64,000 bases of DNA from assembly GCA_021846505.1 (NCBI GenBank), contig JAJZWV010000005.1:1-64000 (forward strand), read 5' to 3'. A model generated the notes under the pieces. The model worked only from the letters and a program-made list of their open reading frames with translations, made no database searches and was not told the DNA's origin. This document shows positions 7,859-52,091 of this stretch, piece after piece (position 1 is the first letter of the stretch; every line of letters starts with the position of its first letter). Origin of the DNA: Bacillota bacterium (GTDB taxonomy: Bacteria > Bacillota > Sulfobacillia > Sulfobacillales > JAIMBI01). A program made the position numbers and the translations under genes.

Positions 7859-7963
7859 GGGGCCGCGCGTGTGTGGTGGCTCGTAGCCGCACTGCCCAGC
7901 CCCTTGCGAAGTTGCCTCCACAGAGGACACCACCCCCAGCGTCGGGCTGGGTGGGGGGTTCTC

Positions 7964-8766: not shown

Positions 8767-8934
8767 CTGGCACCCCCCTTTTTGTGCAGTGTGTCACAGA
8801 AAAGCAGAAATGCAGACAGCCATAGCCGGACGACGGCGCGTCGGGACAGCAGCTGTCCACCGGCGGCCGCCGGAACGTGACGGCGGGTCCCTGCGATAGC
8901 CCCAGCTGGGCGCCTGGTTCGCGAGGTGACTCGC

Positions 8935-9592: not shown

Positions 9593-9846
9593 GGGAACGC
9601 TCCCCTCTCCATGGTCATCGTAACAAGACTATGTTACGCCGTATGCGACCGAAGCGCCAGCCCAGGGGCGCGACTTCCATGCAATCTTGGCGTCCAGCAT
9701 CCTATGGCGGGCTCCAAGCACAATAGCCGATAGCGGTCCTCCGCGGACGGCACGCCGCAGCATGGGCGATCCCGCCTCCAGCACCAGCTGGTCCCACCCG
9801 TTCCGGCCCAGGCCCGGAGGAGGCGTCCATCATCTGCCGCACCGCC

Positions 9847-10500: not shown

Positions 10501-11007
10501 ACCAACAGGCGCCGGCTCAGACCGCCGCGGCCATCGAGTCAGGAAGCGCCCGCTCCACCAGGCTCCCTTACGCTCATTCTACCGATCACCACCACCGGCG
10601 CGCAGGGCCGTTCGGCGCACCGCGCCTGCACCCTTAGGCCTCAGAAACTCATGCCGCGGGGCGGCTGCGGGCGAAAGCGGCTCAGGCACACCGCACTCAG
10701 CAGGCTCCCCCCCGCGCGGTGGCTGCGTGGATGCGGCCACCCCTTGATCGGGGCGCCACGCCGGAAGGGGAGCGGGGATCGCACGGGGCAGGCTACCTGC
10801 ATGGCCCCTTGGGCGGAAGCACGTGGCTCTCACCCCATGGATGGAGAGAAGCTCGCCTAATCAGCGGCACCGTGCGAAAGCGCGTGAACTAGCGCCGCCT
10901 TCTCATCAATTGGCCGAAGTAGCTGGCCCCGGCCAGCAGCCGCCCCCGCGGCGGCTCCGCCGGGCTTTGTCGGGTCACAGGGCCCAGCCGCACCCACTCC
11001 CGGTCCC

Positions 11008-29142: not shown

Positions 29143-29163
29143 AGGCCCCTCCGTTCAGTCCTG

Positions 29164-32100: not shown

Positions 32101-33012
32101 GTCCGGCAGCAGCAGGTGCCGCTCCTCGGCCACCATGAGAAACAGGAGCCGATATATCAGCCGGAGCAATTCGCGGTAGTACTCACCGGCCGACAGCACG
32201 CCGCTGGCCGCGGCCGATCTTAGGGCGGCATTGTCGGGGTGCTGCAGAAACCCACTGCCCAAGGTGTCCAGGGCCTGCTTGACCCCGTCGCGCAGCCCGT
32301 CGCGGATGCGCCCCCCTTCACTGTGCGCCCGGCTGGCGTACTGCTCAATCCATGAGGTGGGCGCCGCGTCCACGCTCAGGGGAAACCGAGAGACATGGCA
32401 CAGCCGATACAGGGCGCGGAAATCGTCATACAGGCCGCCGTCCATCATGGCGGCCAAATCCCATTCTATAAAGCTGGGGCGCGCCACCCGCTGGGTGGCC
32501 CGCAAGAGCCACAGCTTTGCGCCATTGCTTAACAGGGCCCACACATGATCGCTGCGGTTCAAATACTCCTGCACCATCGCGTAGGGACTCCGCTTTTGGC
32601 CCTTGGCTTTCTGGCCCAGCGGTGTGGAGAAGCCGACCAGGTGCACCGGCAGCCCCTCTGGCCCACCACACCGGTGGGAAATGTGATACGTCTCGCCCGA
32701 TTCATTCACGGTGGCCGCTTGATTCTGATACACGAGCTCGTAGCCGAGCACGCGAAGCAGCGGGCGCAGCCACTGATCCCGCGTGGCGCCGGTATCGGAC
32801 CCCGCCACCCGATGCAGCGACAGCTGCAGGCTCTTCCAGGCCGACCGCGCTTCCGTCCAGGCGCGATTCAGCTCGGCTTCCAACTCCGCCTCGGCCGAGA
32901 AGCCAAACGCCTTGGCTCGCTGGTCGGGCTCCTTGCTTTCCAGCAGCTGCACCAAGATGTCCTCCGGCAGCAGCCCGCCCTCGGACCGGTAAGTGGTATA
33001 GGTCGAGTGCAT
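29164..33012 (-). CDS. N6-adenine DNA methyltransferase, large Eco57I/DrmMI/PglX-like
   Basis: SAM motif I 'VCDPACGSGHFLLAAARAIA', catalytic 'FDAVLGNPPWERVKLQQKEWF'; 1282 aa. Confidence 0.9.
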   Translation of the reverse strand: MHSTYTTYRSEGGLLPEDILVQLLESKEPDQRAKAFGFSAEAELEAELNRAWTEARSAWKSLQLSLHRVAGSDTGATRDQWLRPLLRVLGYELVYQNQAATVNESGETYHISHRCGGPEGLPVHLVGFSTPLGQKAKGQKRSPYAMVQEYLNRSDHVWALLSNGAKLWLLRATQRVARPSFIEWDLAAMMDGGLYDDFRALYRLCHVSRFPLSVDAAPTSWIEQYASRAHSEGGRIRDGLRDGVKQALDTLGSGFLQHPDNAALRSAAASGVLSAGEYYRELLRLIYRLLFLMVAEERHLLLPDSDDSSPYMFIYEEAFGMERLRRLVDHHATRSMPSGFSDLWQGLLSTFELFASHPDGESPLPIPALNGQLFSASALPHLMQAGLENHVLLAALRPITVLPGEERRRVNYAALDVEELGSVYESLLDYTPQWVQDGERWAFELSAGSDRKSTGSYYTPPELVGALIESSLSHLIEERKREPDPVSALLSLTVCDPACGSGHFLLAAARAIARAVAQARFQEQEPTPDQFRVALREVIEHSIYGVDKNPLAVDLCKVALWIEGHTPGQPLSFLDHRIRLGDSLVGVFDLQAPEVSVPDGAFLVKTGDDKAPAQRLKKRNTAEKRGVQHFESLDPRAADSWQLDALAQSYNQLDRMKSDSVDAVHAKESQYQQSRDLNPVWQRDWQRANLAVAPFFAELTPDNEMRVPTTVHLQQAARDQEVSNAVVAYANQLAREHHFFHWPLEFPEVFHRGGFDAVLGNPPWERVKLQQKEWFQARRPEVARAANRARRVESVERLQAEDPALWREFQQASHEAEAASGFARTSGRFPFGGVGDVNTYALFAELARDLMGPQGMAGVVVPTAIATDYTYRDFFGDLLKQRQLRSLYDFENRAKLFPGVHSSYKFGLLTLDSRPVERAHFGFFLEHVEDMRDRMRVFDLTRPDLVQVNPNTATCPVFRTRADAEITAGIYRRVPVLINEGTHENPWGIQFSRMMDMANDSHLFRSEPGPDRVPLYEAKMMHQFDHRWGTYDGGQVRDTTDAERSDPDFRVTPHYWVDKREVEERVPTDWHHQWFIGFRNITNATNERTVLAAVVPWAGAGDELPLVFPCEGSVASTTLMANLNSIATDYVARQKVGGTHLSYFLLKQFPILPPEAYSPADVAFITQRVVELVYTAWELQPFARDIGYDGAPFAWDPDRRAVLRAELDGYYAHLYGLSRTELQYILDPQSVKGSGFPGKTFPTLKRGELRAYGEYRTERLVLAAYDALAYRFQDRKRTQPAG

Positions 33013-36040: not shown

Positions 36041-36346
36041 TCAGCGTGCAGGCGCTCGCCGAGGGGGTAGGTCATCGGTGGGCCGCCGTGACCAGGGGCC
36101 GCAGGAGCCCAAGCGCAGGGCCCCGTACCACACGCCGCGAATGGCGCCAAACGACAGGATAGCAGCCTTCATGTACTCCGAGCAGGTTGGTCGGTAGCGA
36201 CAGCGGGCGGGCCGGCGCCCAGAGATCTCCCGCTGATAACGCTCTATGAGCCGCACCAGCTGCGCCGCCGCCCTGCCGGGTTTACTGGTGCTCAAGGCCG
36301 CTGTTCCTGATGGCCATCTGGACAATGCGCGCGGTCTCCTGGGCAT
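36041..36346 (-). CDS. yidD: YidD-family membrane protein insertion efficiency factor
   Basis: 'RLIERYQREISGRRPARCRYRPTCSEYMKAAILSFGAIRGVWYGALRLGSCGPW'; true start likely internal (~36256). Confidence 0.85.
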   Translation of the reverse strand: MPRRPRALSRWPSGTAALSTSKPGRAAAQLVRLIERYQREISGRRPARCRYRPTCSEYMKAAILSFGAIRGVWYGALRLGSCGPWSRRPTDDLPPRRAPAR

Positions 36347-36755: not shown

Positions 36756-37637
36756 TCAGGCCGGCACGTACATGCCGCCTCCCACCTGCTTGAGCACCAG
36801 GATCCCACCGGATCCGCAATACTTCGGGTTTTTCAAATCAGACAGCGCGGTCTTCAGGGTCACCTCTTTGTAGCCCGCGGCAATGCCCGCGGCCATCACA
36901 AACTGGCCCGTCTCCGCCACGGTTTGCCGAATGAAGTCCTTGGCGGACCGGGTGGGAGTTGTTTCGCCTCTGGCGCAGTCCGGCACCGTTCCATACACCA
37001 CGACCCCACCAGACCCGGCTGACCAGATTTCCGCGTCGATTTCGCGGAGCGGAAGGTTCAATGAAGCCGCCGCTTTTTCGAAGAGGGCCACGGCATCCAA
37101 GGCGCTCACCGGATGGCCCGTCAGCTCCGTCGCCTTCTCTACGATGTACTTGTCCGGCTTCACGGTCTGCACGCCGCAAAACATGCGGAAGTACTGGAAG
37201 CCAGCGGGTCCGAAGCCGGGAACCCTGACGTGAAGATAGTCCTGCGGCCCGACAGATACCGCCCAGCGATGGAGCCTCTCCGCTTCGGTGGCGTCGGACT
37301 GCGCATCGGCAACCCGTTGGAAATAGGCACAGACCCCTTCTAAGGTGCGCCCTCGCCGCTTGTCGTTGTAATCGAGGTGTTCGCTGAGAAAGGGACCGCC
37401 GCCGCCAGACGACTGGATCAGGTCAGAGAGGTCGCCAAGGGAAATCAAACTGGGCTGACGTCTAGCCAGCGTCTGAACCCGGGGGAGCACCATCGACGCA
37501 TAGGGCCGATTCAACGACAGGACGCAATCCACCAAATTCAGCGCGGGCTTCATCCACCCGTAGTCATTGCGAGCGCGCACGGCCGAAAAGTTAGTCGCCA
37601 AATACTTCTTGACCGCGTCCAAGTCGTCTTGCCTCAC
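36756..37637 (-). CDS. HhH/DNA-glycosylase-like protein of unknown specificity
   Basis: 'VPGFGPAGFQYFRMFCGVQTVKPDKYIVEKATELTG' resembles HhH base-excision glycosylase cores; GGGAGGAAG RBS before GTG 37637. Confidence 0.5.
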   Translation of the reverse strand: MRQDDLDAVKKYLATNFSAVRARNDYGWMKPALNLVDCVLSLNRPYASMVLPRVQTLARRQPSLISLGDLSDLIQSSGGGGPFLSEHLDYNDKRRGRTLEGVCAYFQRVADAQSDATEAERLHRWAVSVGPQDYLHVRVPGFGPAGFQYFRMFCGVQTVKPDKYIVEKATELTGHPVSALDAVALFEKAAASLNLPLREIDAEIWSAGSGGVVVYGTVPDCARGETTPTRSAKDFIRQTVAETGQFVMAAGIAAGYKEVTLKTALSDLKNPKYCGSGGILVLKQVGGGMYVPA

Positions 37638-37773
37638 AGATCTTCCTCCCTGATGGCTGCGCGGTATCCGTTCCCCCCGAATGCCGTACCGGTCTACATT
37701 CCAACCATCGCCTGTGTCACCTTCCCACACCAGTGCCGAGTCAATCGGGCTGACTGGTTCAAGCCGCTCGCCC

Positions 37774-40700
37774 CTACTCCTGCAGCTTCACATGCTTGGG
37801 GGCCTTGAAGCCTTCTGAGTAGAACAGCCCCTCATATCGCTTTAGCGCCTTGAGGTCATCGGCGAGGCGGCGCGACGCGCTGCTAGCGGCCATGACCTTG
37901 GCCATCACTTTGGCGTCGCTCTCGTTCACACGCAGCGCGAGGTAAGACCCCACGGCGGTGTACATGGACTCTTCGAAGTCCCGGCTCTCCTGGGATGCTA
38001 AGATGAAAGCGATGCCGAACTTCCTGGCTTCCTTGGCCATGGTGCTGAGCAGGTGCAGCTTGGACGCCTTGTGCGCCTCGTCAAAAATGACGGCGTGGGT
38101 GATGCGCCGCTGAGTGCCACGCGCCAGCATATCCTGGTACAAGCTGTGCAGGACAAAAAGGGCAAACGCGGTCTGAACCCTCTGATTCCCGCTCCGGTGC
38201 AACTCGACCACCACCGGGTTTGGGTCATCCAGCAGGGAGCGCACCGGACCACCGGCCTCAAACAAGTCGTAGTCCGCCAGCTCGCCCAGCCGCTGCATGA
38301 TCCCATTATCGGGCTTGGGACTGGTCTTCAGGATATCGAAGAACCGCCGAAACTTCGGAATGGGCCCGCGCTGCGCGAGGGACCACCCGTGTTCCTGGTA
38401 CGACTGCTTCAGCGCCTCGCGAATCTGCCCCAGCTGCACATCGCCCAACTCGGGGAAAATCGCGCCAAAGATATCGCGAATCATCCCGACGTTGTCCACA
38501 TAGGGCTGAGACCCGGTGTCGGGCACAATCATGGGGTTGAAGCCCAGCGACTGATACGTCACCCGGCTCAGCGGGTCCAGGCGCTGACCCAGCTTCTCGT
38601 CCATGTCGTCGTGGTATGAAAACACAATCGGGATGACACCCTGCTCGGCCAGCTGGGCCGTGATGTTAATGAGCGCCGTGGTTTTCCCCATGCCAGGCAG
38701 ACCCACGACCATCAGGTGCGGGTTGGACTTCGTCGACACATGCCAATCCACTCGCTCGCCCGCCCTGGTGGTGCCCAGCACCGCTACCGCCTCTTGAGGC
38801 TGGCCTTCGGTCCCGTCGAGCGACTCTTCGGGTACGGTCCCCTGCGGGGGGCTGATTTCCGGCACCAGCGGTTCGGGCGGCCGCACATCCGCGGGCTTCG
38901 ATAGGGCCGGAGTCGGCCCTGACGCCGTGGAACACAGCCACATCGCGCCATCGCCCAGATCCATCGGCTGCTCACCCTGGAACTCCGGGGAGAAGATAAT
39001 GGCCTGATTCTGCCCGGTCAGCTCCACGGCGGCACTCACATCCCCCTCGCTGGCGATCAAGTCGGCAACTGAACGCTGGATGCGCTGATAAGCCTCCTGG
39101 TCAAGTCCGGTGTCGAGCGCCTGCTCCGCGTAAAACTGGATCAGCTGACCGAGGCGCATGCGATTCAGCATGCCCACGACGCTAGACGCATTGGGAGCGA
39201 GCATGCGCTGCCAAGCTTTGGTGGAGGCTTGGAACGCCCTCTCTGATGTCTCCATCTGCTCCGCGCGGTGGACTCCCAGCATGTAGCGGACGAACTCTAC
39301 CTGGAAGAAGCTGACCCTGAGGCCGCCCCGGCCGGCCTTGACGTATGCCAGAGTGTCCGCGATCCCCTCGCCCAAAATCTGCTGCACCTCGTCATGCGGA
39401 ATGAAAAACCCCTCGCCCAGAAAGGGCCATGGGTCCGCCGCCCCCCCATACTCTCGGCTGAACCGATAAAACACGGCCAGGCCAATCGCCCTTTGAACCA
39501 TGTGATCCGGGCTGGCGAGGCGAATCGCCGTGCGCCCACTCACGGCTTTTAGGTCTTCAAGCAAACTGGGGCTTCCGGGCTCGCTGGACACCGACACCCC
39601 CAAGTCCCGGGCATACTGCGCAAACGCCGCCTCCAAGCCGTCTGCCTTGGCTGTCGAGGTCACGAGCTGCAGTGCGCTCAAATCAGCACGCTCGGGCGCG
39701 CGGTCCACAATCACGGCCCGGTGTCCGCCCCTCAGGGCGGCAATGCTCGCCATCGACGCCGATGGCAGGTGCCGGTCTACGGTCACCACCCAATCGCAGG
39801 CGTCGTGCAAGTTTTGCAGCAACTGACGGCTTAGCCGATCCGCCGCCACCGTGAGCACCGGATGGGCCCCCGCTGCTCCGCCCATGCGCAGGGCCGTGAG
39901 AAGAGTCAAATGGGTTTGAAGTCGGATCACCCGGTCACTGAAGAGCCGCGCCACGGGATGCTTCTGCCCCTTTTCCGGGGCCGGCAGCCAGGAATCCCAC
40001 CTGTCCGCCCCGCCACCAGTGGTCGCCACCGGTTGGTACAAGCCGTAGGCGTGCAATGGCATCACCGGGGGCACCCCCTCCGTCAGGCGCGCAGCCGCTG
40101 TCAGCGGGTGAAATACGATGCCCACGTGGGCGGGCCGCATCGAGCCAGCCCCGTCCCGCTTCGCCCAGGTGAAGCGGGGCACGGACCGATTCCCCCTGCG
40201 GCTGATGGTCTCGTTCATCCACCGGTGATCCGCCGCGTCAGACTTGGATTGCCGGCGGAGGCGATTCGAACGCGAAAAAAACTGGCCAATCAAATCGTTG
40301 TCGGCATCGGCGCTTACCAGAAGATCCAGCTCCACCGCCACGTCCTGTCCAGGGGATTCCTCCTCCGACGGGTCCTCGTCGGCCACATTCTGCGTCCCGG
40401 CCTTTAAGGCATGCGCCAGCGCCGCCCCGTTCCCGGTCTTTACACCCAACACCTTCAACGTGTGATACTCGGGGTTCAGCTCTCGGTACCGCTTAAGTTG
40501 CTCCGCCACCAGGTCGGCCGTGGCTGCCGGGCGCGCGGACACCGACGCCGCGGCTCCTACATCGCCCCCATTCCACATGGTGGCAAATAACGCCACCGTC
40601 GACGTGGGGTCTGGGTCCTCCGCGAATATCATGGCCACGGCGTTGAAATCCAGCGCATCGCCGAAGACAAACGCCTGGCCCTTGTCCGGCCCCGGCATGA

Positions 40701-42621
40701 ACATCGGAAAATTTGCCCCGTCCAGCGGTGCCAGGACGGACGGCAACTCCTTCGCCGCCACCTCGCTCCCCTCGTACCGCACGTGGTCCACCAACTTCGC
40801 GAAGGCATGCTGCCACGCGACGCGCAGGGGATGCATGGGCAGGACGATTAAGCCGCGGCATGCGCCATCCGCGTCCTGCACTTCCACCGTGAAAGCCAGT
40901 GCCGAATCGGGATCGGAGCCTTCCAACACCGCTGCCCAGGCGTTGACGTATTCAGAGGGGTCATTGCTCCCGACCGGCACCCACGCCAGCACGGAGGGAC
41001 CCTGTTTCAAAGTTTCAGCCCACAAGCGCGTGGCGGTCTCTACGCGGGACCAATTCCCGGATGGCTCCCGGCCTGGAGCTATGGGCACAAACGTGGGGTG
41101 GTCCAGTAGCTCCCCATCAGAACGCACCCGCACCTGCCAACGGCCCACGGCTCCTCCGTGCTGATGCCAATCCTGCTCCACCACCTTGAGCAGGGGCGGA
41201 TACGCGACGGTGACTTGCAACGCGGGGGCCGCGGCGCGAATCACGCCTGCCTGCTCGGAGTAAACTCCTCGGCCATAGCGCTCGGCCAGCTCCAGAAAAG
41301 CATCACGGGTTGGGCATGTTGCCAAGCCTTCAACCATAGTGCGGGCGTTGGCCTTGGCCGTCTTCGCCGGGGACGCTTCGGCCTGTCCGAAATACACCAT
41401 GAACTGCTCGCTCCCCGGCGACTCGAAATGGCCAGCGCGCACCACCACTTCGGCAAAAAACTTATCGCCTTCGTCGATCTGAAAATCGGATCCGAGAAAC
41501 CGGCAATCCTGCACCGACTTGTCCCGGTGGGAGACCGATTTAGACGCCAGGATGTCTGTGCCTGACCTTATCTCCACTTGGTAGTCCACAAATCCTTTGG
41601 GTAGGTCCACTGGCTTCACCCGCCACCGGACCGTGAGTCGCTTGGAGTCTTCTGGGTGTTCGGCATCGATGACGTAGTGCAGTTCACCGCCCCGGTCCTC
41701 GAGCCCGCACCACCGGCCCAGCGCATTCTTTGTGTCGCTGCGCCATGGATCCACGCTCAGCGCGGCTAGTTCCCTCGGATCAAAGACGCCAATGGTCATC
41801 TGCCCCAGCCAAATCGACTGAAACCGAGGGTCCGTGGCAATCTGCATGGTGACCAGATGGGCCGGCTGGCGCTCGCCGAGGCGGCTTGCCTCGGTGAGCA
41901 ACTCATTTTGCTCGGTCGTGGGCTCATGCAGCAGCAGCGCCGCCACCCGCTCGGGCGCACTTTGCAGCGCCGAGTGCTCCATCAACAGCCGCGCAGATAG
42001 CTTGCGCGCCTCTTCAATGTCTTTTTCGGTCAGCTCTCGGTCGGCCCTGACCGGCCACAGGCCCAGCCACGCCATCGCACGGCCAAGGGCCCGGTGGTCG
42101 CTGGCTTGCGACTGAAACAGGAACTCCTGCCACGGGGGCAGGGGCCTAATGGCTCCAAGTCGTCGTGCCTGACCCTTCGCCTGCTTGATGAGCTCCCAGG
42201 TTCTGCGGCCCACTTGGGACGCCAGATGTCGGCTGGCATCATCAAAGAAGTGCTTCTCGTCTAACTCCCGGCCGGCACTGAAAATGCCGTCCATGCCGGC
42301 ATCCGGCTGCGATTCGTCAACCAGCAGGAGAAGCGGCCGCCGCTTCTCCTCCCGCAGCTCCACGGCGCGCTCACCGCGGATCCAGCTCGGGGAGTCACCC
42401 TGGCCCACACCGTAGACATCCCACTGCGGAACGTCAAAGTGCGGATGGGCCAACAGCGTCCGTATCACCCCGCCCGGCAAAAATCGGGCGTAGGCCACGT
42501 CTCCGGGAACTGCGGCCGGCAGCAGACGCTGAAAAGTCTCCGCGAGCATGCGAACTTGTGCATCCGTCAAGTCCAGGGCATCCAAATCCAGTCCAGCCGA
42601 TTCAACTGATGGAACGGACAT
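37774..42621 (-). CDS. Large protein with C-terminal HerA/VirB4-like P-loop ATPase (DptH/MAD8-like architecture)
   Basis: 1615 aa; 'NPHLMVVGLPGMGKTTALINITAQLAEQGVIPIVFSYHDDMDE' Walker A; 'ITHAVIFDEAHKASKLHLLSTMAKEARKFGIAFILASQESRDF' Walker B/sensor. Confidence 0.8.
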   Translation of the reverse strand: MSVPSVESAGLDLDALDLTDAQVRMLAETFQRLLPAAVPGDVAYARFLPGGVIRTLLAHPHFDVPQWDVYGVGQGDSPSWIRGERAVELREEKRRPLLLLVDESQPDAGMDGIFSAGRELDEKHFFDDASRHLASQVGRRTWELIKQAKGQARRLGAIRPLPPWQEFLFQSQASDHRALGRAMAWLGLWPVRADRELTEKDIEEARKLSARLLMEHSALQSAPERVAALLLHEPTTEQNELLTEASRLGERQPAHLVTMQIATDPRFQSIWLGQMTIGVFDPRELAALSVDPWRSDTKNALGRWCGLEDRGGELHYVIDAEHPEDSKRLTVRWRVKPVDLPKGFVDYQVEIRSGTDILASKSVSHRDKSVQDCRFLGSDFQIDEGDKFFAEVVVRAGHFESPGSEQFMVYFGQAEASPAKTAKANARTMVEGLATCPTRDAFLELAERYGRGVYSEQAGVIRAAAPALQVTVAYPPLLKVVEQDWHQHGGAVGRWQVRVRSDGELLDHPTFVPIAPGREPSGNWSRVETATRLWAETLKQGPSVLAWVPVGSNDPSEYVNAWAAVLEGSDPDSALAFTVEVQDADGACRGLIVLPMHPLRVAWQHAFAKLVDHVRYEGSEVAAKELPSVLAPLDGANFPMFMPGPDKGQAFVFGDALDFNAVAMIFAEDPDPTSTVALFATMWNGGDVGAAASVSARPAATADLVAEQLKRYRELNPEYHTLKVLGVKTGNGAALAHALKAGTQNVADEDPSEEESPGQDVAVELDLLVSADADNDLIGQFFSRSNRLRRQSKSDAADHRWMNETISRRGNRSVPRFTWAKRDGAGSMRPAHVGIVFHPLTAAARLTEGVPPVMPLHAYGLYQPVATTGGGADRWDSWLPAPEKGQKHPVARLFSDRVIRLQTHLTLLTALRMGGAAGAHPVLTVAADRLSRQLLQNLHDACDWVVTVDRHLPSASMASIAALRGGHRAVIVDRAPERADLSALQLVTSTAKADGLEAAFAQYARDLGVSVSSEPGSPSLLEDLKAVSGRTAIRLASPDHMVQRAIGLAVFYRFSREYGGAADPWPFLGEGFFIPHDEVQQILGEGIADTLAYVKAGRGGLRVSFFQVEFVRYMLGVHRAEQMETSERAFQASTKAWQRMLAPNASSVVGMLNRMRLGQLIQFYAEQALDTGLDQEAYQRIQRSVADLIASEGDVSAAVELTGQNQAIIFSPEFQGEQPMDLGDGAMWLCSTASGPTPALSKPADVRPPEPLVPEISPPQGTVPEESLDGTEGQPQEAVAVLGTTRAGERVDWHVSTKSNPHLMVVGLPGMGKTTALINITAQLAEQGVIPIVFSYHDDMDEKLGQRLDPLSRVTYQSLGFNPMIVPDTGSQPYVDNVGMIRDIFGAIFPELGDVQLGQIREALKQSYQEHGWSLAQRGPIPKFRRFFDILKTSPKPDNGIMQRLGELADYDLFEAGGPVRSLLDDPNPVVVELHRSGNQRVQTAFALFVLHSLYQDMLARGTQRRITHAVIFDEAHKASKLHLLSTMAKEARKFGIAFILASQESRDFEESMYTAVGSYLALRVNESDAKVMAKVMAASSASRRLADDLKALKRYEGLFYSEGFKAPKHVKLQE

Positions 42622-44413
42622 CGTGCACCTCCTGATGATGAAAGCGGGGCTGCAGCAGCTTCATGCTTTCCGAATCGTTGACGCCAACTAACAGGCCCAG
42701 GTCGCGGAGTCTCTGTTCCAACACCAGGCGATTGGTTCTCAGGAGATCGGCGGCGATGGGCATCCCCGGCGGCGCCACATCCACGAACAATCCATAGCGC
42801 AGGCGGAGAGTCTTAAGAAACTCAGCCAAGGTAAGCGCCCGCCGCTCGCAGGCACCGGTCGCCGTTACCGCCCATAGATGGCGATGGACCAGGTAGTCTA
42901 ACGTGGTGTTGCTAAGCACAAGCGCGCGGGCATCCGCGCTGCGCGGGACACCCGCCACGGTCTTTCGAACCCGCCGCTGCACCACCAGCCGATTGGGTGA
43001 GGCTTCGTCCGATACCAGCGAGGAACTGAGCAGCTGGACGAACGGCATTTCCCCGGCATAACCCATTAGCCGGGCCAAACCATCCGCCAGCCGCTGAACG
43101 GGATGAACCGCCGTTTCTTGCAACACCGCCATAACATCCTCTGGTCCTTGGCTCTTGCTCAACTCACTGCCCAGGCGGCGACATTGCCTGGCAGCCTGGT
43201 CGGACACTGCGGCGGCTCTCGGGTGCCGCGAATCCAACAGCCGCGCCAGGGCCACGATACGGTCACGGCCGTGCGGCGTGGAAGGTGGCAGCGTGCCCTC
43301 CAAATGCGGATCCTCCTCGGCAAGCTGTTCAAGTACGCGGTAAGTCATGAAGCAGGTGGGCAGCCGCCGCATCACCTGATAAGCATGCGCCATGGATTCT
43401 TCGGCCAGGTCGCGGAGCTCACGGCTGCTGCCGGCCGACGCGTCCACGAACAGTGGAACTCGCACCTCCAGCGGCACCGGTTGATAGGTATCCAGGATTG
43501 ACAGCGCCAACTGCGCACTGGCCAACACCATGACGGTGAGACCCACAGCGAGGGACGTTTCCAACATCGCCATCAGGGCATCTAGGGGGACGCTGTCTCC
43601 ATACTGCGCGAGAAGCACCCGAAAGTCTTCGCCAAATTCCTCGGCGGCCACGCGCGCCAGTGGCAGCTGATTGGCAATGGGCGCCGCGTCGCCCGGAGCC
43701 GGTTTGGGAGCTTCCCCCACGGCTTCTGCAATGCGCACCATCAGCGTTTGCTCCACCGACAAGCCATCGGCAGCCCCAGCACTGAAGGAATCGGCCGTCA
43801 GGGAGCTCGCTTTCCGCCCGCTCTCCACTGCCTCTCCAAACGACCGCAATAGGAGGTTCTCCTGGAAGCGACCCAGTGGAAAGGCGCCCGCCTCCCCCGG
43901 ACCCTGGGGCCCTCGTAGTACATCGCCATCGGGCTGGGCCGCCAGGATGGCCGCGAGCATATCTGAAAGGCCTCGCACGTCCACATACTGGGCCGGCAAA
44001 TCGAGCCAGCTGGCGAAGTAGTGCACGGGATAAGCACGGATGATAGGTGCCGCCCGGTCGGCGCTGTGGCGCTGCGCTTCGAGGCAGTGTGCCAGCACTA
44101 GGTCTCCTACTATCGCATCGGCGGCGGGCCCACGTGTGCCCACCCTGCTGGCTCCGACCAACCTCGACGCCACATCGTGGGTTGCGGCTGACTTGGCTCC
44201 CGGGGGAGCGAACGCGGCGCGGAACTGGCCCGATCCCCGCCGCACCCCGTGCCGAAACAAGTAAAACAGGGCGGGAAGCAAAGTTCCAATCGCGAACGAA
44301 TGCGGTTGGACCGGAAGCACCGGGTCATAATTAGATGTCCAGAGCCGACGGACCGTCGCGACGGTCAGGGCGTCCTCCGCATTTTTTCTATAGCTGCCTG
44401 TCGTTGATGCCAC
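42602..44413 (-). CDS. Tandem paralog 3 of unknown family (603 aa)
   Basis: 'VRRLWTSNYDPVLPVQPHSFAIGTLLPALFYLFRHGVRRG' and 'LRTNRLVLEQRLRDLGLLVGVNDSESMKLLQPRFH' shared with the two upstream genes. Confidence 0.9.
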   Translation of the reverse strand: MASTTGSYRKNAEDALTVATVRRLWTSNYDPVLPVQPHSFAIGTLLPALFYLFRHGVRRGSGQFRAAFAPPGAKSAATHDVASRLVGASRVGTRGPAADAIVGDLVLAHCLEAQRHSADRAAPIIRAYPVHYFASWLDLPAQYVDVRGLSDMLAAILAAQPDGDVLRGPQGPGEAGAFPLGRFQENLLLRSFGEAVESGRKASSLTADSFSAGAADGLSVEQTLMVRIAEAVGEAPKPAPGDAAPIANQLPLARVAAEEFGEDFRVLLAQYGDSVPLDALMAMLETSLAVGLTVMVLASAQLALSILDTYQPVPLEVRVPLFVDASAGSSRELRDLAEESMAHAYQVMRRLPTCFMTYRVLEQLAEEDPHLEGTLPPSTPHGRDRIVALARLLDSRHPRAAAVSDQAARQCRRLGSELSKSQGPEDVMAVLQETAVHPVQRLADGLARLMGYAGEMPFVQLLSSSLVSDEASPNRLVVQRRVRKTVAGVPRSADARALVLSNTTLDYLVHRHLWAVTATGACERRALTLAEFLKTLRLRYGLFVDVAPPGMPIAADLLRTNRLVLEQRLRDLGLLVGVNDSESMKLLQPRFHHQEVHDVRSIS

Positions 44414-44443
44414 CGATGCACCTCCCCGCGATCCTCGCCGGCT

Positions 44444-46222
44444 TTAGCCCACCGCAGTGCCTGCCGCATCCAGGCGTCTGAATCGCGGATGCAGCAACTT
44501 CATGGACTCCGCGTCGTTCACCCCGGTCAAAAGCCCCAAGTCCCTCAGGCGCCGCTCCAGCGCGCTGCGGTTTTGCCTCAGCACCTCGGCCGATATGGGC
44601 TGGCCCGGGGGCGCTGCGTCGACAAAAAACCCATATCGCTCGCGCAGGCCCGCCAAAAATTCGCGATAGGACACGGACCGGTGGGGAGAACTCCAAAGGT
44701 GGCGGTGCACGACGTAATCCAACACCCCATTGGAGAGCACCAGGGATCGCACCTCCGTGCTGCGCTGGACCCCACCGCGCGACTCCCTTGCCCTCCGCTG
44801 GGCCGCCAGCCGATAGGGCGCAGCCTCATCGGCAGTCAAGGCCGAGCTCAACAGCTTCACGAAATGGCCCTCCTGAGACACGCGTCCCATCATGCGCACC
44901 AACACCTCCGCCAGGCGCTGCACGGGATGGACGGCTCCATCCCTCAGCAAGTCCAACAGCTCGGAGGCTGAGTCCTGTTCTCTGATAGCCCGGGCCAGCT
45001 GATTGCATTGCACTGCGGCTCGCTCCCGGATAGTCGCGGACCGAGCATGGCGGCTCTGCAGCACATCCACCAACAGCCGCACGCGGTCAAAGCCATCGGG
45101 CGCTTCCGGTGGCAGTTCATCCGACAGTGCCTCGTCGACACCCGCCATCTCGTCCAAGATGCGCAGGACCATGAGGTCCAGCGGGGCACGGCGCACAAGC
45201 CGGTAGGCACCTTGCATGGACTCCTCGGCCAGTTCACGCAAGCGGTACTGGCCGCCCATCGACGCATCCACGAACAGCGGCCACTTGTCGGAACGCTCCG
45301 GGGGGGACACCGCTCCGCCGTTTAGAATGTTCCGAGCCAGTGCGGTGGACGCCAGCACCATGACGGCGAGCCCTATAGCGATGGAGCACTCCAGCATGTC
45401 CGTGAGCACTGTGAGTGGCATGATGTCGGCACCATTTATCAGCACCGTCTGAAAGTCGGCGGCAAATTCCTGGGCGGCGCCGGCGGCCAAGGGCCACTGG
45501 CCGCTGATGGCTTCAGCCGCCACCGGTGCCTCGCCCACGAGGCCCGCAATGCGCGCCATGACGACTTGCTCAGCCGACAGTGCATCCGCCGCCTCATCGC
45601 GGAACTGGTCCGCCGTTAAGGCGGACGGGCGGCCCCGCGTCTCGACTGCACCCGCAAACACCCGGAGCAGGGCATTGTCCTGGAGCGCCTCCGCCCCAAA
45701 CAGCCTGGGCGCGCCCGGCGCATGGCTAGGGCTGTGCCCAGGCGCCTGAGCGAGGGCAGCCGCCAGCGCATCCGGCACATAGCGCAAGTTGGAGTACTTC
45801 ACCGGTAGATCAAGCCAGCTGGCCAGGTAATGCGTCGGATAGGCACGAATGATGGGCTCGGCGCGGGCCGCACTGCGCTTCCGCGCCTCCAGGCAGTGGG
45901 CCAGGACCATGTCCCCCAGTATGGCGGGGCCGGCGGGGCCGTCCACCCGGATGGCGGGATGCTGCACTAGCTTGGCCGCGACGTCTTCGGCTCGAACCGG
46001 ACCGCCGTCCCCCGAGCTGAACGCGGGCGCGAACCGGCCACGTCCACGCCGCACGCCCCACCGAAAAAGATAAAACAAGGCAGGCAGCATGGTGCCAACG
46101 GCAAAGTCCTGCGGCTGCACTGCCAGCACCGGCGCGTAATTCACCGTCCAGAGACGGCGGACGGCAGAGGCCGACAGCACATCAGTGGCCAGCTGCCGAT
46201 CGCTCATCGCCTGTCTAGCCAT
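44444..46222 (-). CDS. Tandem paralog 2 of unknown family (592 aa)
   Basis: 'VRRLWTVNYAPVLAVQPQDFAVGTMLPALFYLFRWGVRRGRGRF', 'LRQNRSALERRLRDLGLLTGVNDAESMKLLHPRF'. Confidence 0.9.
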   Translation of the reverse strand: MARQAMSDRQLATDVLSASAVRRLWTVNYAPVLAVQPQDFAVGTMLPALFYLFRWGVRRGRGRFAPAFSSGDGGPVRAEDVAAKLVQHPAIRVDGPAGPAILGDMVLAHCLEARKRSAARAEPIIRAYPTHYLASWLDLPVKYSNLRYVPDALAAALAQAPGHSPSHAPGAPRLFGAEALQDNALLRVFAGAVETRGRPSALTADQFRDEAADALSAEQVVMARIAGLVGEAPVAAEAISGQWPLAAGAAQEFAADFQTVLINGADIMPLTVLTDMLECSIAIGLAVMVLASTALARNILNGGAVSPPERSDKWPLFVDASMGGQYRLRELAEESMQGAYRLVRRAPLDLMVLRILDEMAGVDEALSDELPPEAPDGFDRVRLLVDVLQSRHARSATIRERAAVQCNQLARAIREQDSASELLDLLRDGAVHPVQRLAEVLVRMMGRVSQEGHFVKLLSSALTADEAAPYRLAAQRRARESRGGVQRSTEVRSLVLSNGVLDYVVHRHLWSSPHRSVSYREFLAGLRERYGFFVDAAPPGQPISAEVLRQNRSALERRLRDLGLLTGVNDAESMKLLHPRFRRLDAAGTAVG

Positions 46223-46315
46223 CTTGGCCCACCCAGCGGTCGCGGCTCGGCGACGTGTGCGAATCCATTTGCATTGGCACCCTCCGTTCCTCTGACCACA
46301 CCTCGAGATACGTCA

Positions 46316-48106
46316 TCAGCTTGGGTCGTCCATGGGCGCACCCACGTGGCCGTGGAAGCGCGGCTGAAGAAACTTCATGGTCTCGGCATCGTTGACGCCT
46401 GCCAGCAAGCCCAAGTCCCGCAGCCGCCGCTCCAGCCAGTGCCGGTTTTGCCGAAGGTTTTCCGCGGAAATTGGCAAGCCGGGCGGAGCCGCGTCCACGT
46501 AGAACCCATAGCGCTGTCGCAGCAGCGCCAAGAATTGCCGGTAGGTGACCGGGCGGCGCTGAAGGTGGTCTCCGCCGTCTTCTTGCCACAAATGGCGGTG
46601 GACCAGGTAGTCGAGCGCCGTGTTGTTCAGGGTGAGGGATCGGGCTACGCCGCGCCGGGCGACGCCATCTCGCATTTTGGATACTCGGCGCTGGGCGGCC
46701 AATCTATAAGGGGACGCATCATCCGCCACCAAAGAGGACCCTAACAATTTCGCAAACCGCAATTCCTGGCTATTGGTTCCCATGAGCCGCACCACCACGT
46801 CGGCCAACTGCAGCACCGGATGTACAGACCGATCGTCCAAAACGGCCACCAAGTCCGAGAATGTCTCGTCTCTGACGCACGCCCGGGCGAGCTGGCGGCA
46901 GTAGACTCCTGCCCGGTCCCGTATGGCTGGCCCACGGTGATGCCTTTCCTTCAGCACATCCAGCAAAAACTGAACCCGAGGGTTCCCGTCGGGTGATGAC
47001 GGCGGAATGTCGGCGGCTAGCGCATCATCGTCCCGTGCCAGGCTCTCCAACACACGAAGCGTCATCAAGCTCACGGGAAGGCCCCTCATCAGGCGCTCGG
47101 CCTGGTCCATCGATTCTTCTGCCAGCTGACGCAGATGCGGGTGACCACCCTCGGACGCATCCACAAACAGCGGCCACGGCTCCCGGCTGGAGGCGTCGCC
47201 CCGTTCGTCAAACAGCCGGCGGAGTTGCCCGGCACTGCCCAACACCATGCGCGTGAGGCCTATGGCCAGCGCGCATTCGAGCATCGGGACCAGTGAGGGC
47301 AGCGGAATTTCCTCCCCGTATGCGGTTAGGAACACGCGAAAGTCTTCCCGGAATGCCGCAGCCGCCGCCCCATCCAGTGGCAGCTGATTCGGCATGGCCG
47401 TGCCGTCTCCCTGCGCGGGACGGGGCGCCATCTCAAGCTCCTGGGCCATGCGCACCATGGCCAGTTGGTCGGCCGACAGGGCATCGGCCTCGCCTTCCAC
47501 GAATCGGTCCGCCGTCAAGGCATAGCTGCGGTCGCCAACCTCCACCGCCGTGGCAAAGGTTTTCAGCAGCAAGTTGTCCCGCACAGAGCCCACGGAGAAG
47601 GGACTTGGCATCATGGCGTCCCTCGCTGAATCTGGCCTTCCCAGGATGGTGGCCAGTGCATCAGGCACATACCGCATGTGAGCGTACGCTTGAGACAAGT
47701 CCAGCCAGCTCGAAAAATAATGGCTCGGGTACGCCCGATCGATCGGGCTCTGGCGACTGGCACTGTGATTAACCGCTTCCAGGCAGTGTGCCAAAATTAC
47801 ATCGCCTAAAATAGCGGCGCCCGCTTCGACATGCACAACTACATCGGGGCGCCAGCTCAGTCGCTCGGCCACACCATCTGCCGTGGCTCTCCGCTCGCCC
47901 TTCCCATAGGTCTCTACAAACCGGCCCCGGCCCCGCGCCTCCCCGCGCCGCATCAGGAACAGCAGGGCAGGGAGCAGCGTGCCGACGGAGAAATCGCCCG
48001 GCTGCATCGGAAAGACAGGATCGTAATGCGCGGTCCACAGCTCGCGCACCATGGCCCGCGACAGCACGTCTTCCAGGATTGCCCGGTTGCCAATCGGCTT
48101 AGCCAT
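46316..48106 (-). CDS. Tandem paralog 1 of unknown family (596 aa)
   Basis: 'VRELWTAHYDPVFPMQPGDFSVGTLLPALLFLMRRGEARGRGRF', 'LRQNRHWLERRLRDLGLLAGVNDAETMKFLQPRF'; overlaps the kinase gene stop. Confidence 0.9.
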   Translation of the reverse strand: MAKPIGNRAILEDVLSRAMVRELWTAHYDPVFPMQPGDFSVGTLLPALLFLMRRGEARGRGRFVETYGKGERRATADGVAERLSWRPDVVVHVEAGAAILGDVILAHCLEAVNHSASRQSPIDRAYPSHYFSSWLDLSQAYAHMRYVPDALATILGRPDSARDAMMPSPFSVGSVRDNLLLKTFATAVEVGDRSYALTADRFVEGEADALSADQLAMVRMAQELEMAPRPAQGDGTAMPNQLPLDGAAAAAFREDFRVFLTAYGEEIPLPSLVPMLECALAIGLTRMVLGSAGQLRRLFDERGDASSREPWPLFVDASEGGHPHLRQLAEESMDQAERLMRGLPVSLMTLRVLESLARDDDALAADIPPSSPDGNPRVQFLLDVLKERHHRGPAIRDRAGVYCRQLARACVRDETFSDLVAVLDDRSVHPVLQLADVVVRLMGTNSQELRFAKLLGSSLVADDASPYRLAAQRRVSKMRDGVARRGVARSLTLNNTALDYLVHRHLWQEDGGDHLQRRPVTYRQFLALLRQRYGFYVDAAPPGLPISAENLRQNRHWLERRLRDLGLLAGVNDAETMKFLQPRFHGHVGAPMDDPS

Positions 48107-51100
48107 GGCGCGGCTCAGCCCGTGGCCGCACGCTTAGCACCTGCTGGATGTTGCCGTTCTCCTCCACCCGGTCGACGTCCACGGCGTAAACTTGCCGACT
48201 GTCGGAGGGGTTCCAGGCGAAGTAGTGCCGCCGCTGCTCCTGGGCTAGGCGCTGGGCAAAAATCGATAGGCGCGCATGGGTGTCTGCGCTCCTCAAGTCA
48301 AACCCGGGCCGAAAGCCCTCCTCCACCTCCAACAGCAACGAAAACAGCTCCAGGCCCATCTCCAAATGTTCACGCTGGCCCCCGTCGTAGGTATAGGCGA
48401 GGGACACTTCGGTATGGAGAGTGGGCACGCCTCGAAGGTCGGATGGCGGCACGCTCAAGGAAAATCCTTCATACGGCTTTTCCACCCAAAACACGCTTTC
48501 CGTGGCGGTGCGAGCCGGCACGCGCAGGGACACGCCGCCGCTTTGCTCCAGTGCAATTCGCGGCAAATCGTCCAGCGCCGACAGGCCCCGCACCAACCTT
48601 TGGCACAGCGCGTCGGTCTCATCGCGGGTCATGTGGCCCACCCTTCGGAACAAGTCCAAGTGGGCTCCGCCGACCAAGCTAGCCGCATCAGGATGGTCCA
48701 GAAAGTAACTTTGGCGCCTCAGGACCTCGAGCTTAGAGCCTGAGCCGCGCGCAAGCAGCTGGCGGTCCACCTCCGGCTCGGCCACTAGTGCGGGGTCTAG
48801 CAGGGTCAGCTCGGCGAGCACTTCTCCTTGGCGGTGTGGTGACTCCGGGTCAAACGCTCGGGTGGCAAACAGACTAACGGGAGAATCTGCAAGTTGTTGG
48901 TGGATCTCCTGGCATGTGTCGGTGCCAAATAGCACATAGCTTACGGTCGCTCGCAGCTCCCGAGTGGTGATGTGCACGGTGCCGCGGTGGTGGACGGCCT
49001 GCAACGCCTCGGTCAGCCGCTGGCGAACCAATTTCCCCTGAACCGGATCGCGGAGCGTGCGCACCGACTGGTAGGGCGAGCACCAGGCTTGGGCACTGCA
49101 CGTTCGGCACTGCGTCCATAGGTCCGCGGACGGGTTGGGGCCGTCTACCAGCACGCCAATTAGCTGCTCAAGGAAGTCTGCGCGCGTGCCTCCATCGTGG
49201 AGCGATCCGACCAGCGACCGCTGGTTCAAGTCCAAGATCCGAATGCGCGAATCCGCCACCGGGGTCCGGCCCAGCAGTGCGGCGCGAAGTTGGCTGGTAA
49301 GCCAGGTATCCTCGCCGTTCGCAAAGCGCTCCAGCCACGCACGCAGCGGGCCGCTGTTGATGGCCACCAACCGAACCCGGTGTGGAGAAAAGTTCCGGTC
49401 ATGAAACGGCTCAAACAGCTCGTCCAGCAACTCGGCCGACGTTTTCTCCCGATACGAGGCTGAGCCATCCAGATTGATCATCAGCTCGCGCCCATCCGGC
49501 AGCGATTGCTTCCAGATACGGTCAGCCGAGCGGGGTGGGGTGAGACCCAGTTCGTGGACCAAGTGCTGTAGCAGCGCCGTCTTGCCATCACCGGCATTCC
49601 CCAGCAGCACCACGAGATTTAAGTCACCATGCTGGATGTCGTCCCGCAGCACGCGGTCCAGCTCCGTCTCAATGTACGTGGACTCAGCAAACGCGGAGTC
49701 GAGCCCCCGGGTCTCGGCGTTCCCGTGCCTCGATCCCGGATACAGGCCCAGCAGTTCTAGCAGCCGCGGGGCCTCATTCCAGCCAAACGGCTGACCTGCA
49801 GGACGAATGTCCTCCACCAGCCCCTGGCCTTCACAGAGAAAACGCAGCCCATCATCGGCGTCGCGGAATCGCCGTGCGGCATCCGGGTCCGTGGCTCTGC
49901 GCACAAACGCGGCCGCTCGTTCCCAGTCGGACTCCTCCACCGCATCCCAGTTCAGCCCGCCCTCTGCATAAACCGGGCGGCTGGGGGCTGGCTCAAACAT
50001 CGCCTGAAACAGTGTCACGCCCAAGGCGTACATGTCGTAGGAGGCGTCGGCCAGCGCTGCCTCCGCGCCTGGGGGGCGCAATCCGGGTGTGGCGGCTACC
50101 GGGTGCTCATGTCCGCGCGTCACGGTGTCATAGTCGGTCAGCACCACGCGACGCCCCTGCACGATGATGTTGCTCAGCGATACGTCGCCGTGAACATATC
50201 CGACTCGGTGCAGGACTGCTAGCGCTTTGCACAAGTCCTCCAGCCAGCCCAAAAGCAGTTCGTCCTGGCTAATGCCTTCTTCCTCCGCCTGCAGTTCGAT
50301 AACCCCCTGGATGCTTTGAAGCGGGACGCCTTCCACCCACTGAAGCACCGCCACTGGTTGATTGGGATCCCAGCTGCTCGCTACTTCATGGACGGAAGCC
50401 AAGGAGGGCACCACCGAATACGGCCGCACGCGCCGGTAGGCGTCGACGGCCAAGGTGCCCATCTCACGGTCACGCATGACCTTGGCGACAAAGGGCCCGT
50501 GCTGCTCCCCATTGCGGACTTCCATAACCTTGTACGAAGTGCCATTGGCCCCCTGCCCCAGCATGGCCAGCACCAGATAATGCTCTCCCCGCGCTGTGAC
50601 GATCTCATCGTCTGCGGCCCAAAACTTTGGCGCCACTGGGATGCTAGTTGACGGCACCTCGTCAGGATCCTCGGCTAGCGGCGGGACCGGCAGTATAAGC
50701 TCCCTTAACCGTTCGGCCAGCTCCGCTGCGCTGCAGCGATCCGATGCCTGACCGCCCATGCCCGCTTCCAGGCACTCTCGAACCTGCGTTTCCGTTTCAC
50801 CGTGACCTACAAACAGCGTCCTTAAGGACTTGCAAAGGGAGAACACGTCGCTCTCGGCGGAGGCTTGTCCCAAACCACCCGCCGCGACCTCTGGTGCCAT
50901 CCACGGGTCAGAGACGACCTCATCGGCCCCCGCCGCGATGGTGGCAACTTGATCCAGCCGTGCCCATTGGAAACCCGTAAACATGGGATGGTTGCCGCCG
51001 CGCACCAAAATCGTTGACGGCGACAAGCCCCGATGAACCACGGGCTTCCCCGTGTGGCCACCTTCATGCATGGTGGCTAGGGCCTCGGCGCAACGCGTGG

Positions 51101-52091
51101 CAAATTCCAGCCGATCCGCGGGCAGCCAGTGCTCGTCGGTCGCGCGCTCGTCCAAGGTCGGAGCATCAGGGGCCACCACGCTGAAGAAGTACATCTCTCC
51201 CGCATAATTGGAGACCGCTTGGAAGGAGTCTACGATGATCGGCACAAAGGGGTGCCTGACCATTTCTTGCATGGCGCCCCACTCTCGCTCCGCGAGCCTC
51301 AGGGGGACCTTGTGGGGTGACGCCGACAAATCGTATGAGTGCACGATCCGCTTTTCCCGCTTGGTGCGGTGCACTCCCACGTAAACGCGGTGAAACAGCT
51401 CCTCCCGTGGGCTGATAAGCTCCAGGTTGATAATTTCCCCCAGGCGGCGAAGCGAACCGTGCACCATGGCTGCCTCCGGGCCGCCCAGCTCCCGAGCGAT
51501 GGCCTGGATCTTCACCGGGTCTAGCTGACCGGACTCATCCACGCGCAGCGCCAAGGACCAGTCTTCCTGGCTGAATACCTGGGGGTAGCGACGGCGGATA
51601 CCCGGAATTTTGCCGGTAGGTTTGGTCAGCAGCATAACGCCTGACACCCATTGGTTGGCGTCCAGTCGCTTGACGGGGCCCGAAGCGATCCTGGCCTTCA
51701 TTTCAAGCTTCTGCAGCTCTTCCTCAACGGTTGCCGGGTTTTCCTTGATGAACACTTCGTCCCAGTGCTTGACCTCAACCACGAAAACGCCTGAGGGTCC
51801 CACGACGAGTTGGTCCACTTCCAAGCGTCGGCCCTGGGAAGCCTTGAGCATTATGTTGGTGTAAATAAACCAGGGGCCATCCTCGCGCCCGCGCAGGCCC
51901 TTCAGCAGGAGCCTGGCCATTTGTTCCTCGCTCGCGGTGGCGAATTCCCCACAGGGAACATGACGAACCGACGGCATCTCGGCCACGAAACCGGCCCCTT
52001 TCACGGTTCCAGTTTGAGAGGTTCGACATATGGTGATGGAAATCTCTCGCAACCGTACGCCTTCGTTTCCCGGCCTGTCAACATCCGCCAC
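48099..52091 (-). CDS. NERD - pseudokinase - Ser/Thr kinase - P-loop NTPase protein (PglW/MAD6-like)
   Basis: NERD 'EVDQLVVGPSGVFVVEVKHWDE'; degenerate kinase 'VVHRGLSPSTILV'; second kinase 'GYVHGDVSLSNIIV...VVLTDYDTV'; Walker A 'LLGNAGDGKTALLQHL'; start uncertain (possibly ~51976). Confidence 0.88.
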   Translation of the reverse strand: MADVDRPGNEGVRLREISITICRTSQTGTVKGAGFVAEMPSVRHVPCGEFATASEEQMARLLLKGLRGREDGPWFIYTNIMLKASQGRRLEVDQLVVGPSGVFVVEVKHWDEVFIKENPATVEEELQKLEMKARIASGPVKRLDANQWVSGVMLLTKPTGKIPGIRRRYPQVFSQEDWSLALRVDESGQLDPVKIQAIARELGGPEAAMVHGSLRRLGEIINLELISPREELFHRVYVGVHRTKREKRIVHSYDLSASPHKVPLRLAEREWGAMQEMVRHPFVPIIVDSFQAVSNYAGEMYFFSVVAPDAPTLDERATDEHWLPADRLEFATRCAEALATMHEGGHTGKPVVHRGLSPSTILVRGGNHPMFTGFQWARLDQVATIAAGADEVVSDPWMAPEVAAGGLGQASAESDVFSLCKSLRTLFVGHGETETQVRECLEAGMGGQASDRCSAAELAERLRELILPVPPLAEDPDEVPSTSIPVAPKFWAADDEIVTARGEHYLVLAMLGQGANGTSYKVMEVRNGEQHGPFVAKVMRDREMGTLAVDAYRRVRPYSVVPSLASVHEVASSWDPNQPVAVLQWVEGVPLQSIQGVIELQAEEEGISQDELLLGWLEDLCKALAVLHRVGYVHGDVSLSNIIVQGRRVVLTDYDTVTRGHEHPVAATPGLRPPGAEAALADASYDMYALGVTLFQAMFEPAPSRPVYAEGGLNWDAVEESDWERAAAFVRRATDPDAARRFRDADDGLRFLCEGQGLVEDIRPAGQPFGWNEAPRLLELLGLYPGSRHGNAETRGLDSAFAESTYIETELDRVLRDDIQHGDLNLVVLLGNAGDGKTALLQHLVHELGLTPPRSADRIWKQSLPDGRELMINLDGSASYREKTSAELLDELFEPFHDRNFSPHRVRLVAINSGPLRAWLERFANGEDTWLTSQLRAALLGRTPVADSRIRILDLNQRSLVGSLHDGGTRADFLEQLIGVLVDGPNPSADLWTQCRTCSAQAWCSPYQSVRTLRDPVQGKLVRQRLTEALQAVHHRGTVHITTRELRATVSYVLFGTDTCQEIHQQLADSPVSLFATRAFDPESPHRQGEVLAELTLLDPALVAEPEVDRQLLARGSGSKLEVLRRQSYFLDHPDAASLVGGAHLDLFRRVGHMTRDETDALCQRLVRGLSALDDLPRIALEQSGGVSLRVPARTATESVFWVEKPYEGFSLSVPPSDLRGVPTLHTEVSLAYTYDGGQREHLEMGLELFSLLLEVEEGFRPGFDLRSADTHARLSIFAQRLAQEQRRHYFAWNPSDSRQVYAVDVDRVEENGNIQQVLSVRPRAEPRHG

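What the first reader, a model, noticed from the sequence alone, without database searches (positions are those of the whole stretch)
42602..48106. Three tandem, diverged ~600-aa paralogs of an unrecognised family inside a defence operon
Three consecutive genes (596, 592 and 603 aa) are clear paralogs end to end. Shared blocks include 'R.LWT..Y.PV..vQP.dF.vGT.LPAL..L.R.G..RG.G.F', 'I.GD..LAHCLEA..hSA.R..PI.RAYP.HY..SWLDL', and C-terminal 'FL..LR.RYG..VDAAPPG.PI.A..LR.NR..LE.RLRDLGLL.GVND.E.MK.L.PRF'. I recognise no catalytic motif. They sit between a NERD-kinase and a HerA-like ATPase with overlapping or very short junctions. Retaining three diverged copies in a row suggests a hetero-oligomer or target-diversified subunits rather than redundancy. 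They could be diverged relatives of an accessory protein in kinase/ATPase systems (for example MADS Mad7, recalled from memory).
Basis: partly seen in the sequence, partly recalled or inferred. Interest (0 to 1): 0.88.

Follow-up and report, generated by a model that had tools for sequence, protein, structure and literature searches.

The report
Triplicated G subunit of FGH defence system
The three neighbouring genes are diverged copies of one subunit (the Mad7/SspG-type "G" protein, probably DNA-binding) of a known kind of bacterial anti-phage machine; relatives normally carry one copy, but several unrelated bacteria have independently built arrays of two to four, which suggests a swappable recognition part.

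Summary
Three intact tandem genes (596, 592, 603 aa) are end-to-end paralogs, 50-52% identical. They are not an unrecognised family: all match NCBIfam MAD7 (E 3e-25 to 2e-31, far below its equivalog cut-off), and their C-termini resemble SspG. The upstream gene fuses NERD, pseudokinase, kinase and a DptF/SspF-like P-loop; the downstream gene is DndH-like with a HerA ATPase. The unit is an F-G-H system of the Dnd/Ssp/MADS678 kind with three G subunits. In 50 related loci from many phyla the order F-G-H holds and nearly all have one G. Arrays also occur in Thioalkalivibrio HK1 (4), Anaerolineae (2), Actinomycetota (2) and AqS2 (at least 2): at least four independent expansions, which argues against an ancient fixed hetero-oligomer. 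The window copies are under purifying selection and differ in proportion to family variability, without a recognition hotspot. Unexpectedly, the window's H has lost a conserved nuclease-like EVK motif (QVE) while HerA, NERD, kinase and P-loop motifs are intact. Most likely the copies are alternative DNA-recognition subunits. The adjoining MTase/helicase genes are a separate ARMADA-like system. New variant of a known kind; mechanism inferred.

The parts
48099..52091 (-). F subunit, 1330 aa: NERD nuclease domain, pseudokinase, kinase, C-terminal DptF/SspF-like P-loop domain
   Evidence: NERD E 9e-11 and Pkinase E 4e-18; MADS6 E 3e-48; SspF E 4e-17 and DndF E 9e-7. Motifs aligned with relatives: NERD EVD..EVKHW intact, first kinase lacks the catalytic Asp residues, second kinase VAK/HGD/TDY intact, GNAGDGKT invariant.
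46316..48106 (-). Ga: first G (Mad7/SspG-type) paralog, 596 aa
   Evidence: MAD7 E 4e-26, residues 25-584; AF2 pLDDT 92
44444..46222 (-). Gb: second G paralog, 592 aa
   Evidence: MAD7 E 2e-31, residues 26-581; 52% identical to Ga
42602..44413 (-). Gc: third G paralog, 603 aa
   Evidence: MAD7 E 3e-25, best stretch residues 216-590; 50-52% identical to Ga/Gb
37774..42621 (-). H subunit, 1615 aa: DndH-like with C-terminal HerA/FtsK ATPase; conserved nuclease-like EVK motif replaced by QVE at residues 1107-1109
   Evidence: mad8 E 3e-25 and DndH E 3e-14; PDB DptH 7es4 E 0.0015; Walker A GLPGMGKT at 1307 and FDEAH at 1513; motif alignment
36756..37730 (-). 324-aa protein of unknown family directly downstream of H; not found beside relatives
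   Evidence: no significant Pfam/PADLOC/NCBIfam hit; absent from the related loci; membership of the system uncertain

Best explanation
The three genes encode alternative G subunits of one F-G-H anti-invader machine (kinase/NERD/P-loop F, HerA-motor H) of the DndFGH / SspFGH / MADS6-7-8 kind. G is expected to be the DNA-engaging adaptor that links DNA recognition to F and the H motor. Having Ga, Gb and Gc lets one F and one H be programmed with different G homo- or heterodimers, widening the range of DNA targets or escaping phage anti-G inhibitors. Because the nuclease-like motif of H is lost here, damage is more likely delivered by the NERD nuclease and/or kinase of F after HerA engages DNA. 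Shown: gene content, paralogy, conservation of order, independent expansions, intact and lost motifs. Inferred: DNA binding by G, assembly of all three with F and H, use of NERD as the nuclease, and the benefit of multiple copies.
For: MAD7 match of all 48 family members; mad7 in 47/48 and SspG in up to 15/48. F and H matches to MADS6/SspF/DptF and mad8/DndH. Conserved order F-G-H in related loci of many phyla and in two Rhizobium plasmids. Independent arrays with 100% support for the window trio, the HK1/AqS2 group, the Anaerolineae pair and the Actinomycetota pair. Purifying selection on the window copies and dN/dS about 0.2 in HK1 arrays. Each window copy deviates from conserved family positions to a similar extent (17, 18, 21 of 109), so none is a degenerate copy. 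Published: DndF:G:H assemble 2:2:1 with translocation-coupled nicking (PMC11662687); DndG is a triple winged-helix protein, probably for target recognition, and DndF variants with NERD plus tandem inactive/active kinase exist (PMC10853773). H motif QVE against an acidic-x-Lys motif in 32 of 37 readable systems.
Against: No recognition hotspot: differences between window copies follow family variability along the whole protein. Foldseek of the confident full-length model and of the C-terminal fragment gave no significant PDB match, so the winged-helix reading rests on topology, on weak hits rich in wHTH proteins and on published analysis of DndG. Homology to canonical DptG was not detectable by profile comparison. 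No test that the three copies join the same complex. A single G in most relatives shows that multiplicity is not needed for basic function.
Confidence: 0.5

Rival explanations
1. Obligate hetero-oligomer: Ga, Gb and Gc occupy distinct fixed positions in one complex (subunit specialisation after duplication), so all three are needed.
For: All three kept under purifying selection at ~50% identity; DndG is present in two copies per complex (PMC11662687), giving room for heterodimers; gene order keeps them inside the F-H operon.
Against: Homologous systems have one G gene; array sizes of 1, 2, 3, 4 arose independently and do not form orthologous Ga/Gb/Gc classes across genomes. No copy shows a block of lost core residues expected of a specialised pseudo-subunit.
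Confidence: 0.25
2. Decoys or anti-inhibitor variants: extra G copies are kept because phages inhibit G proteins, and variants titrate or escape the inhibitors, without new DNA targets.
For: Uniform divergence along the whole protein rather than in one recognition segment fits evasion over a broad surface; a phage kinase that disables DndFGH is cited in PMC11662687.
Against: No phage inhibitor of this family is known to me; not tested.
Confidence: 0.15
3. Near-neutral retention or dosage: the copies are largely redundant.
For: One G suffices elsewhere; uniform divergence.
Against: ~50% divergence with intact frames and conserved invariant residues in all three; recurrence of arrays in at least four lineages.
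Confidence: 0.1

Closest known systems
MADS Mad6-Mad7-Mad8 (methylation-associated defence system)
   Same: NERD/kinase F, MAD7-family G and HerA-type ATPase in the same order; MAD7 profile match
   Different: Scores far below the MAD7 and MAD6 equivalog cut-offs; F carries an extra DptF-like P-loop part; H is 1615 aa rather than the ~200-314 aa of the MAD8 models; no MAD2-type methylase over cut-off in the genome; three G genes
DndFGH / DptFGH (phosphorothioate-linked restriction; standalone DndFGH of Rakesh et al. 2024, PMC10853773)
   Same: Three-part F-G-H module; DndF variants with NERD plus inactive/active kinase fused to the P-loop core are described there; DndH-like HerA C-terminus
   Different: No DndC in the genome; no detectable profile similarity to a DptG; DndG triplication is not mentioned in the main text; nuclease-like motif of H lost in the window
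SspFGH (PMC8092258)
   Same: C-terminal ~60 residues of G match SspG; F P-loop matches SspF
   Different: No single-strand phosphorothioate genes seen in the window; kinase fusion; triplicated G
ARMADA (YprA/RapA/PglX-like system, PMC12458937)
   Same: Genes 33012-35948, 29164-33012 and 24091-29142 downstream match its ArmA-ArmB-ArmC order
   Different: A neighbouring system, about 0.8 kb from the 324-aa gene, not part of the F-G-H unit in relatives; no ArmD next to it

Membership tests
MAD7 (NCBIfam NF047733 / PADLOC mad7) | profile match over the protein's length | tested here: met
   E 3e-25 to 2e-31; residues 25-584 and 26-581 for Ga and Gb, best stretch 216-590 for Gc; 48/48 relatives
MAD7 (NCBIfam NF047733 / PADLOC mad7) | score above curated equivalog cut-off (410 bits) | tested here: not met
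   89-110 bits: distant homologue, not an equivalog
MADS system | kinase MAD6, MAD7 and ATPase MAD8 homologues adjacent in order | tested here: met
MADS system | MAD2-type methyltransferase (and other mad genes) present | tested here: not met
   best genome match 20.9 bits against a 720-bit cut-off, lying in the ARMADA-like methylase; the other mad genes were not searched
DndFGH | DndF core: Walker-A P-loop domain | tested here: met
   GNAGDGKT invariant in all readable relatives; SspF E 4e-17, DndF E 9e-7
DndFGH | DndG: three winged-helix domains | tested here: inconclusive
   confident AF2 model, C-terminal helix-strand topology compatible with a wHTH, no significant PDB fold match
DndFGH | detectable sequence similarity to DptG | tested here: not met
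   hhalign against one DptG sequence: no match
DndFGH | DndH C-terminal HerA/FtsK ATPase | tested here: met
DndFGH | DndH REase catalytic motif | tested here: not met
   family-consensus D..EVK reads D..QVE in the window; identity of this motif as the REase site is inferred from position and pattern
DndFGH | phosphorothioate genes in the genome | tested here: not met
   no DndC in G000, assembly 96% complete; not required for standalone DndFGH according to PMC10853773
DndFGH | F:G:H complex with translocation-coupled nicking | not testable with these tools
   needs biochemistry
SspG | profile match | tested here: inconclusive
   C-terminal ~60 residues only; E 0.008 to 5e-5 in the window, best 3e-10 in relatives

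The most novel reading that the evidence does not exclude
An F-G-H machine whose own H nuclease site is lost, in which a repertoire of G subunits acts as interchangeable invader readers that feed one F kinase/NERD effector and one HerA motor; G arrays of 2-4 copies would be a recurrent way to build multi-specificity in this class.
Probability: 0.2. Interest if true: 0.75.

Novelty: new variant of a known kind. Interest (0 to 1): 0.5.

Why it matters
How F-G-H systems recognise invaders is not settled. G is the least understood subunit, and natural arrays of two to four diverged G genes beside a single F and H provide a ready experiment: swap or delete single G genes and read out the change in phage range or DNA target. 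The loss of the nuclease-like motif in H alongside intact NERD and kinase motifs would also separate the motor role of H from its proposed restriction role.

Tried and rejected
1) First genome-contig scan with only the three window copies found nothing; adding one relative gave 48 loci. 2) viral contigs and phage records: no relatives. 3) Recognition hotspot: tested by comparing differences per segment with family variability; none in the window copies. In HK1 copies 3 and 4 residues 41-125 looked hypervariable, but synonymous divergence is equally raised there (dS 0.90 against about 0.2), so conversion or recombination of the rest of the gene explains it, not positive selection. 4) G arrays tied to loss of the H motif: 2 of 3 readable arrays against 3 of 34 single-G loci, Fisher p 0.04 without correction for relatedness; the single-G sister L011 also lost it and HK1 kept it, so not claimed. 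5) ARMADA methylase/helicases as part of the same system: homologues are not beside relatives, so treated as a neighbour. 6) A catalytic role of G: invariant residues are scattered and no enzyme family matches; left open. 7) Assembly artefact: excluded by ~50% identity between copies and by independent arrays elsewhere.

Full report
Observation. The three ORFs are exactly where stated, 50-52% identical over their whole length, and the only copies in the 3.6-Mb, 119-contig genome. They lie between a 1330-aa NERD-kinase gene and a 1615-aa HerA-type gene. With the called starts the junctions are -8, 93, 30 and -20 nt. Differences by codon position (about 0.4/0.3/0.6) show that all three are selected as proteins.

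Identity of the family. Pfam has no match. NCBIfam MAD7 matches all three (E 3e-25 to 2e-31), well under its equivalog cut-off; PADLOC mad7 and, at the C-terminus, SspG also match. Of the 48 aligned family members (the window copies included), 48 match MAD7 and 47 match mad7. A Bacillus thuringiensis plasmid links the two: its protein in the same position scores 308 bits against MAD7 and aligns with our profile over the last ~125 residues. Similarity to a canonical DptG was not detectable.

Neighbours. The upstream gene (F) consists of NERD, pseudokinase, kinase and a C-terminal P-loop region matching SspF/DndF. Aligned with relatives, its NERD EVD..EVKHW, second-kinase VAK/HGD/TDY and GNAGDGKT motifs are intact, while the first kinase lacks catalytic residues. 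The same architecture is described for a subset of DndF proteins by Rakesh, Aravind and Krishnan 2024 (PMC10853773). The downstream gene (H) ends in a mad8/DndH/HerA ATPase with intact Walker A and FDEAH. The unit is therefore an F-G-H system. According to the literature DndF:G:H assemble 2:2:1 and nick DNA while translocating (PMC11662687), and DndG is a triple winged-helix protein thought to recognise targets (PMC10853773). The main text of that paper describes DndG as constant and simple; no triplication was found by searching it. Its supplements could not be read.

Survey. A scan of one genome per species gave 48 loci from Pseudomonadota, Planctomycetota, Chlorobiota, Chloroflexota, Armatimonadota, Actinomycetota and others, plus two Rhizobium plasmids. 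F-G-H order is kept wherever contig length allows, and one G is the rule. Arrays: window 3; Thioalkalivibrio sp. HK1 4; Anaerolineae RH-23may17-496 2; Actinomycetota F1-80-MAGs030 2; Betaproteobacteria AqS2 at least 2, cut by the contig end. In the tree the window trio is a clade (100/100) whose sister is a single-copy Bacillota system, and the other arrays form their own clades. This gives at least four independent expansions; HK1 and AqS2 share one. Among 42 genomes of the window's order only one other has the gene, in single copy, so the system is a patchy, probably mobile cassette.

What the copies do. If each copy had a fixed place in an obligate complex one would expect conserved classes across genomes; there are none. 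If one copy were decaying it would have lost conserved positions disproportionately; the three deviate at 17, 18 and 21 of 109 conserved positions. If they were target-diversified like HsdS one would expect a hypervariable segment; differences instead follow the family's own variability along the protein. In HK1 copies 3 and 4 an apparent N-terminal hotspot has raised synonymous divergence too, so it marks recombination. The evidence thus favours alternative, whole-protein variants, but cannot say whether they differ in DNA target, partner or inhibitor sensitivity.

Structure. AF2 of Ga with 48 sequences is confident (pLDDT 92, pTM 0.92) but has no significant PDB neighbour. The C-terminal 151 residues fold less well alone (pLDDT 77); their Foldseek list contains many winged-helix proteins (HlyU, PerR, BlaI, MecI, MukE/F, Fur, ORC), none significant. 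DNA binding by G is therefore inferred from the published DndG analysis and is not shown here.

An unexpected feature. Just before the HerA domain the H family has a conserved D..[F][VI]E[VI]K pattern, at the place where DndH has its REase domain (PMC10853773). It is EVK-like in 32 of 37 readable systems but QVE in the window, QVV in the sister system, SVK (with the Asp lost) in a related pair (L044, L051) and TVR in the two-copy Anaerolineae system. That this is the nuclease site is inferred from position and pattern, not from a structure. If right, nuclease activity in this system would have to come from NERD of F.

Surroundings. The genes 33012-35948 (RapA/DrmD-like helicase), 29164-33012 (PglX-like methylase) and 24091-29142 (YprA/DruE-like helicase) reproduce the ArmA-ArmB-ArmC order of ARMADA (PMC12458937). 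They are not found beside the relatives, so this is a separate system in the same defence island, together with a reverse transcriptase of the DRT/nitrilase type at 18024-22589. Some relatives have methylase-like genes close by (motif scan; annotated). A methylation tag for self-recognition is possible but not shown.

Verdict. Real, ordinary in family, unusual in copy number: a new variant of a known kind.

Noticed in passing
window 24091-35948 (-): ARMADA-like system (RapA-like helicase, PglX-like methylase, YprA-like helicase) next to the F-G-H system, without an ArmD gene beside it.
   Followed up: partly
window 18024-22589 (-): 1521-aa reverse transcriptase with C-terminal nitrilase-like region resembling DRT UG5/RT-nitrilase defence proteins.
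   Followed up: no
window 36756-37730 (-): 324-aa protein downstream of H with no family match; one weak Rhodococcus plasmid hit.
   Followed up: partly
window 36041-36346 (-): 101-aa ORF containing 'LVRLIERYQREISGRRPARCRYRPTCSEYMKAAI', which looks like a YidD (membrane protein insertion factor) gene between the two defence systems.
   Followed up: no
L046 (Thioalkalivibrio sp. HK1) 3999-11824: Four tandem G genes; copies 3 and 4 are 86% identical except residues 41-125, where dS is about four times higher: mosaic homogenisation.
   Followed up: partly
L012, L013, L015, L016, L019, L050 (between G and H); L020, L036 (between F and G): Small genes resembling HTH-nucleotidyltransferase (MNT-like) or PIN toxin-antitoxin parts inserted inside the F-G-H operon.
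   Followed up: no
L044 460-4485 and L044 H: A relative whose kinase motifs (HGN, NYD) and H nuclease-like motif (SVK, Asp lost) both look degenerate while the P-loop and NERD are kept.
   Followed up: no
window 61152-62507 (+): 451-aa protein with weak matches to PADLOC candidate defence families (PDC-S14) at the other side of the island.
   Followed up: no
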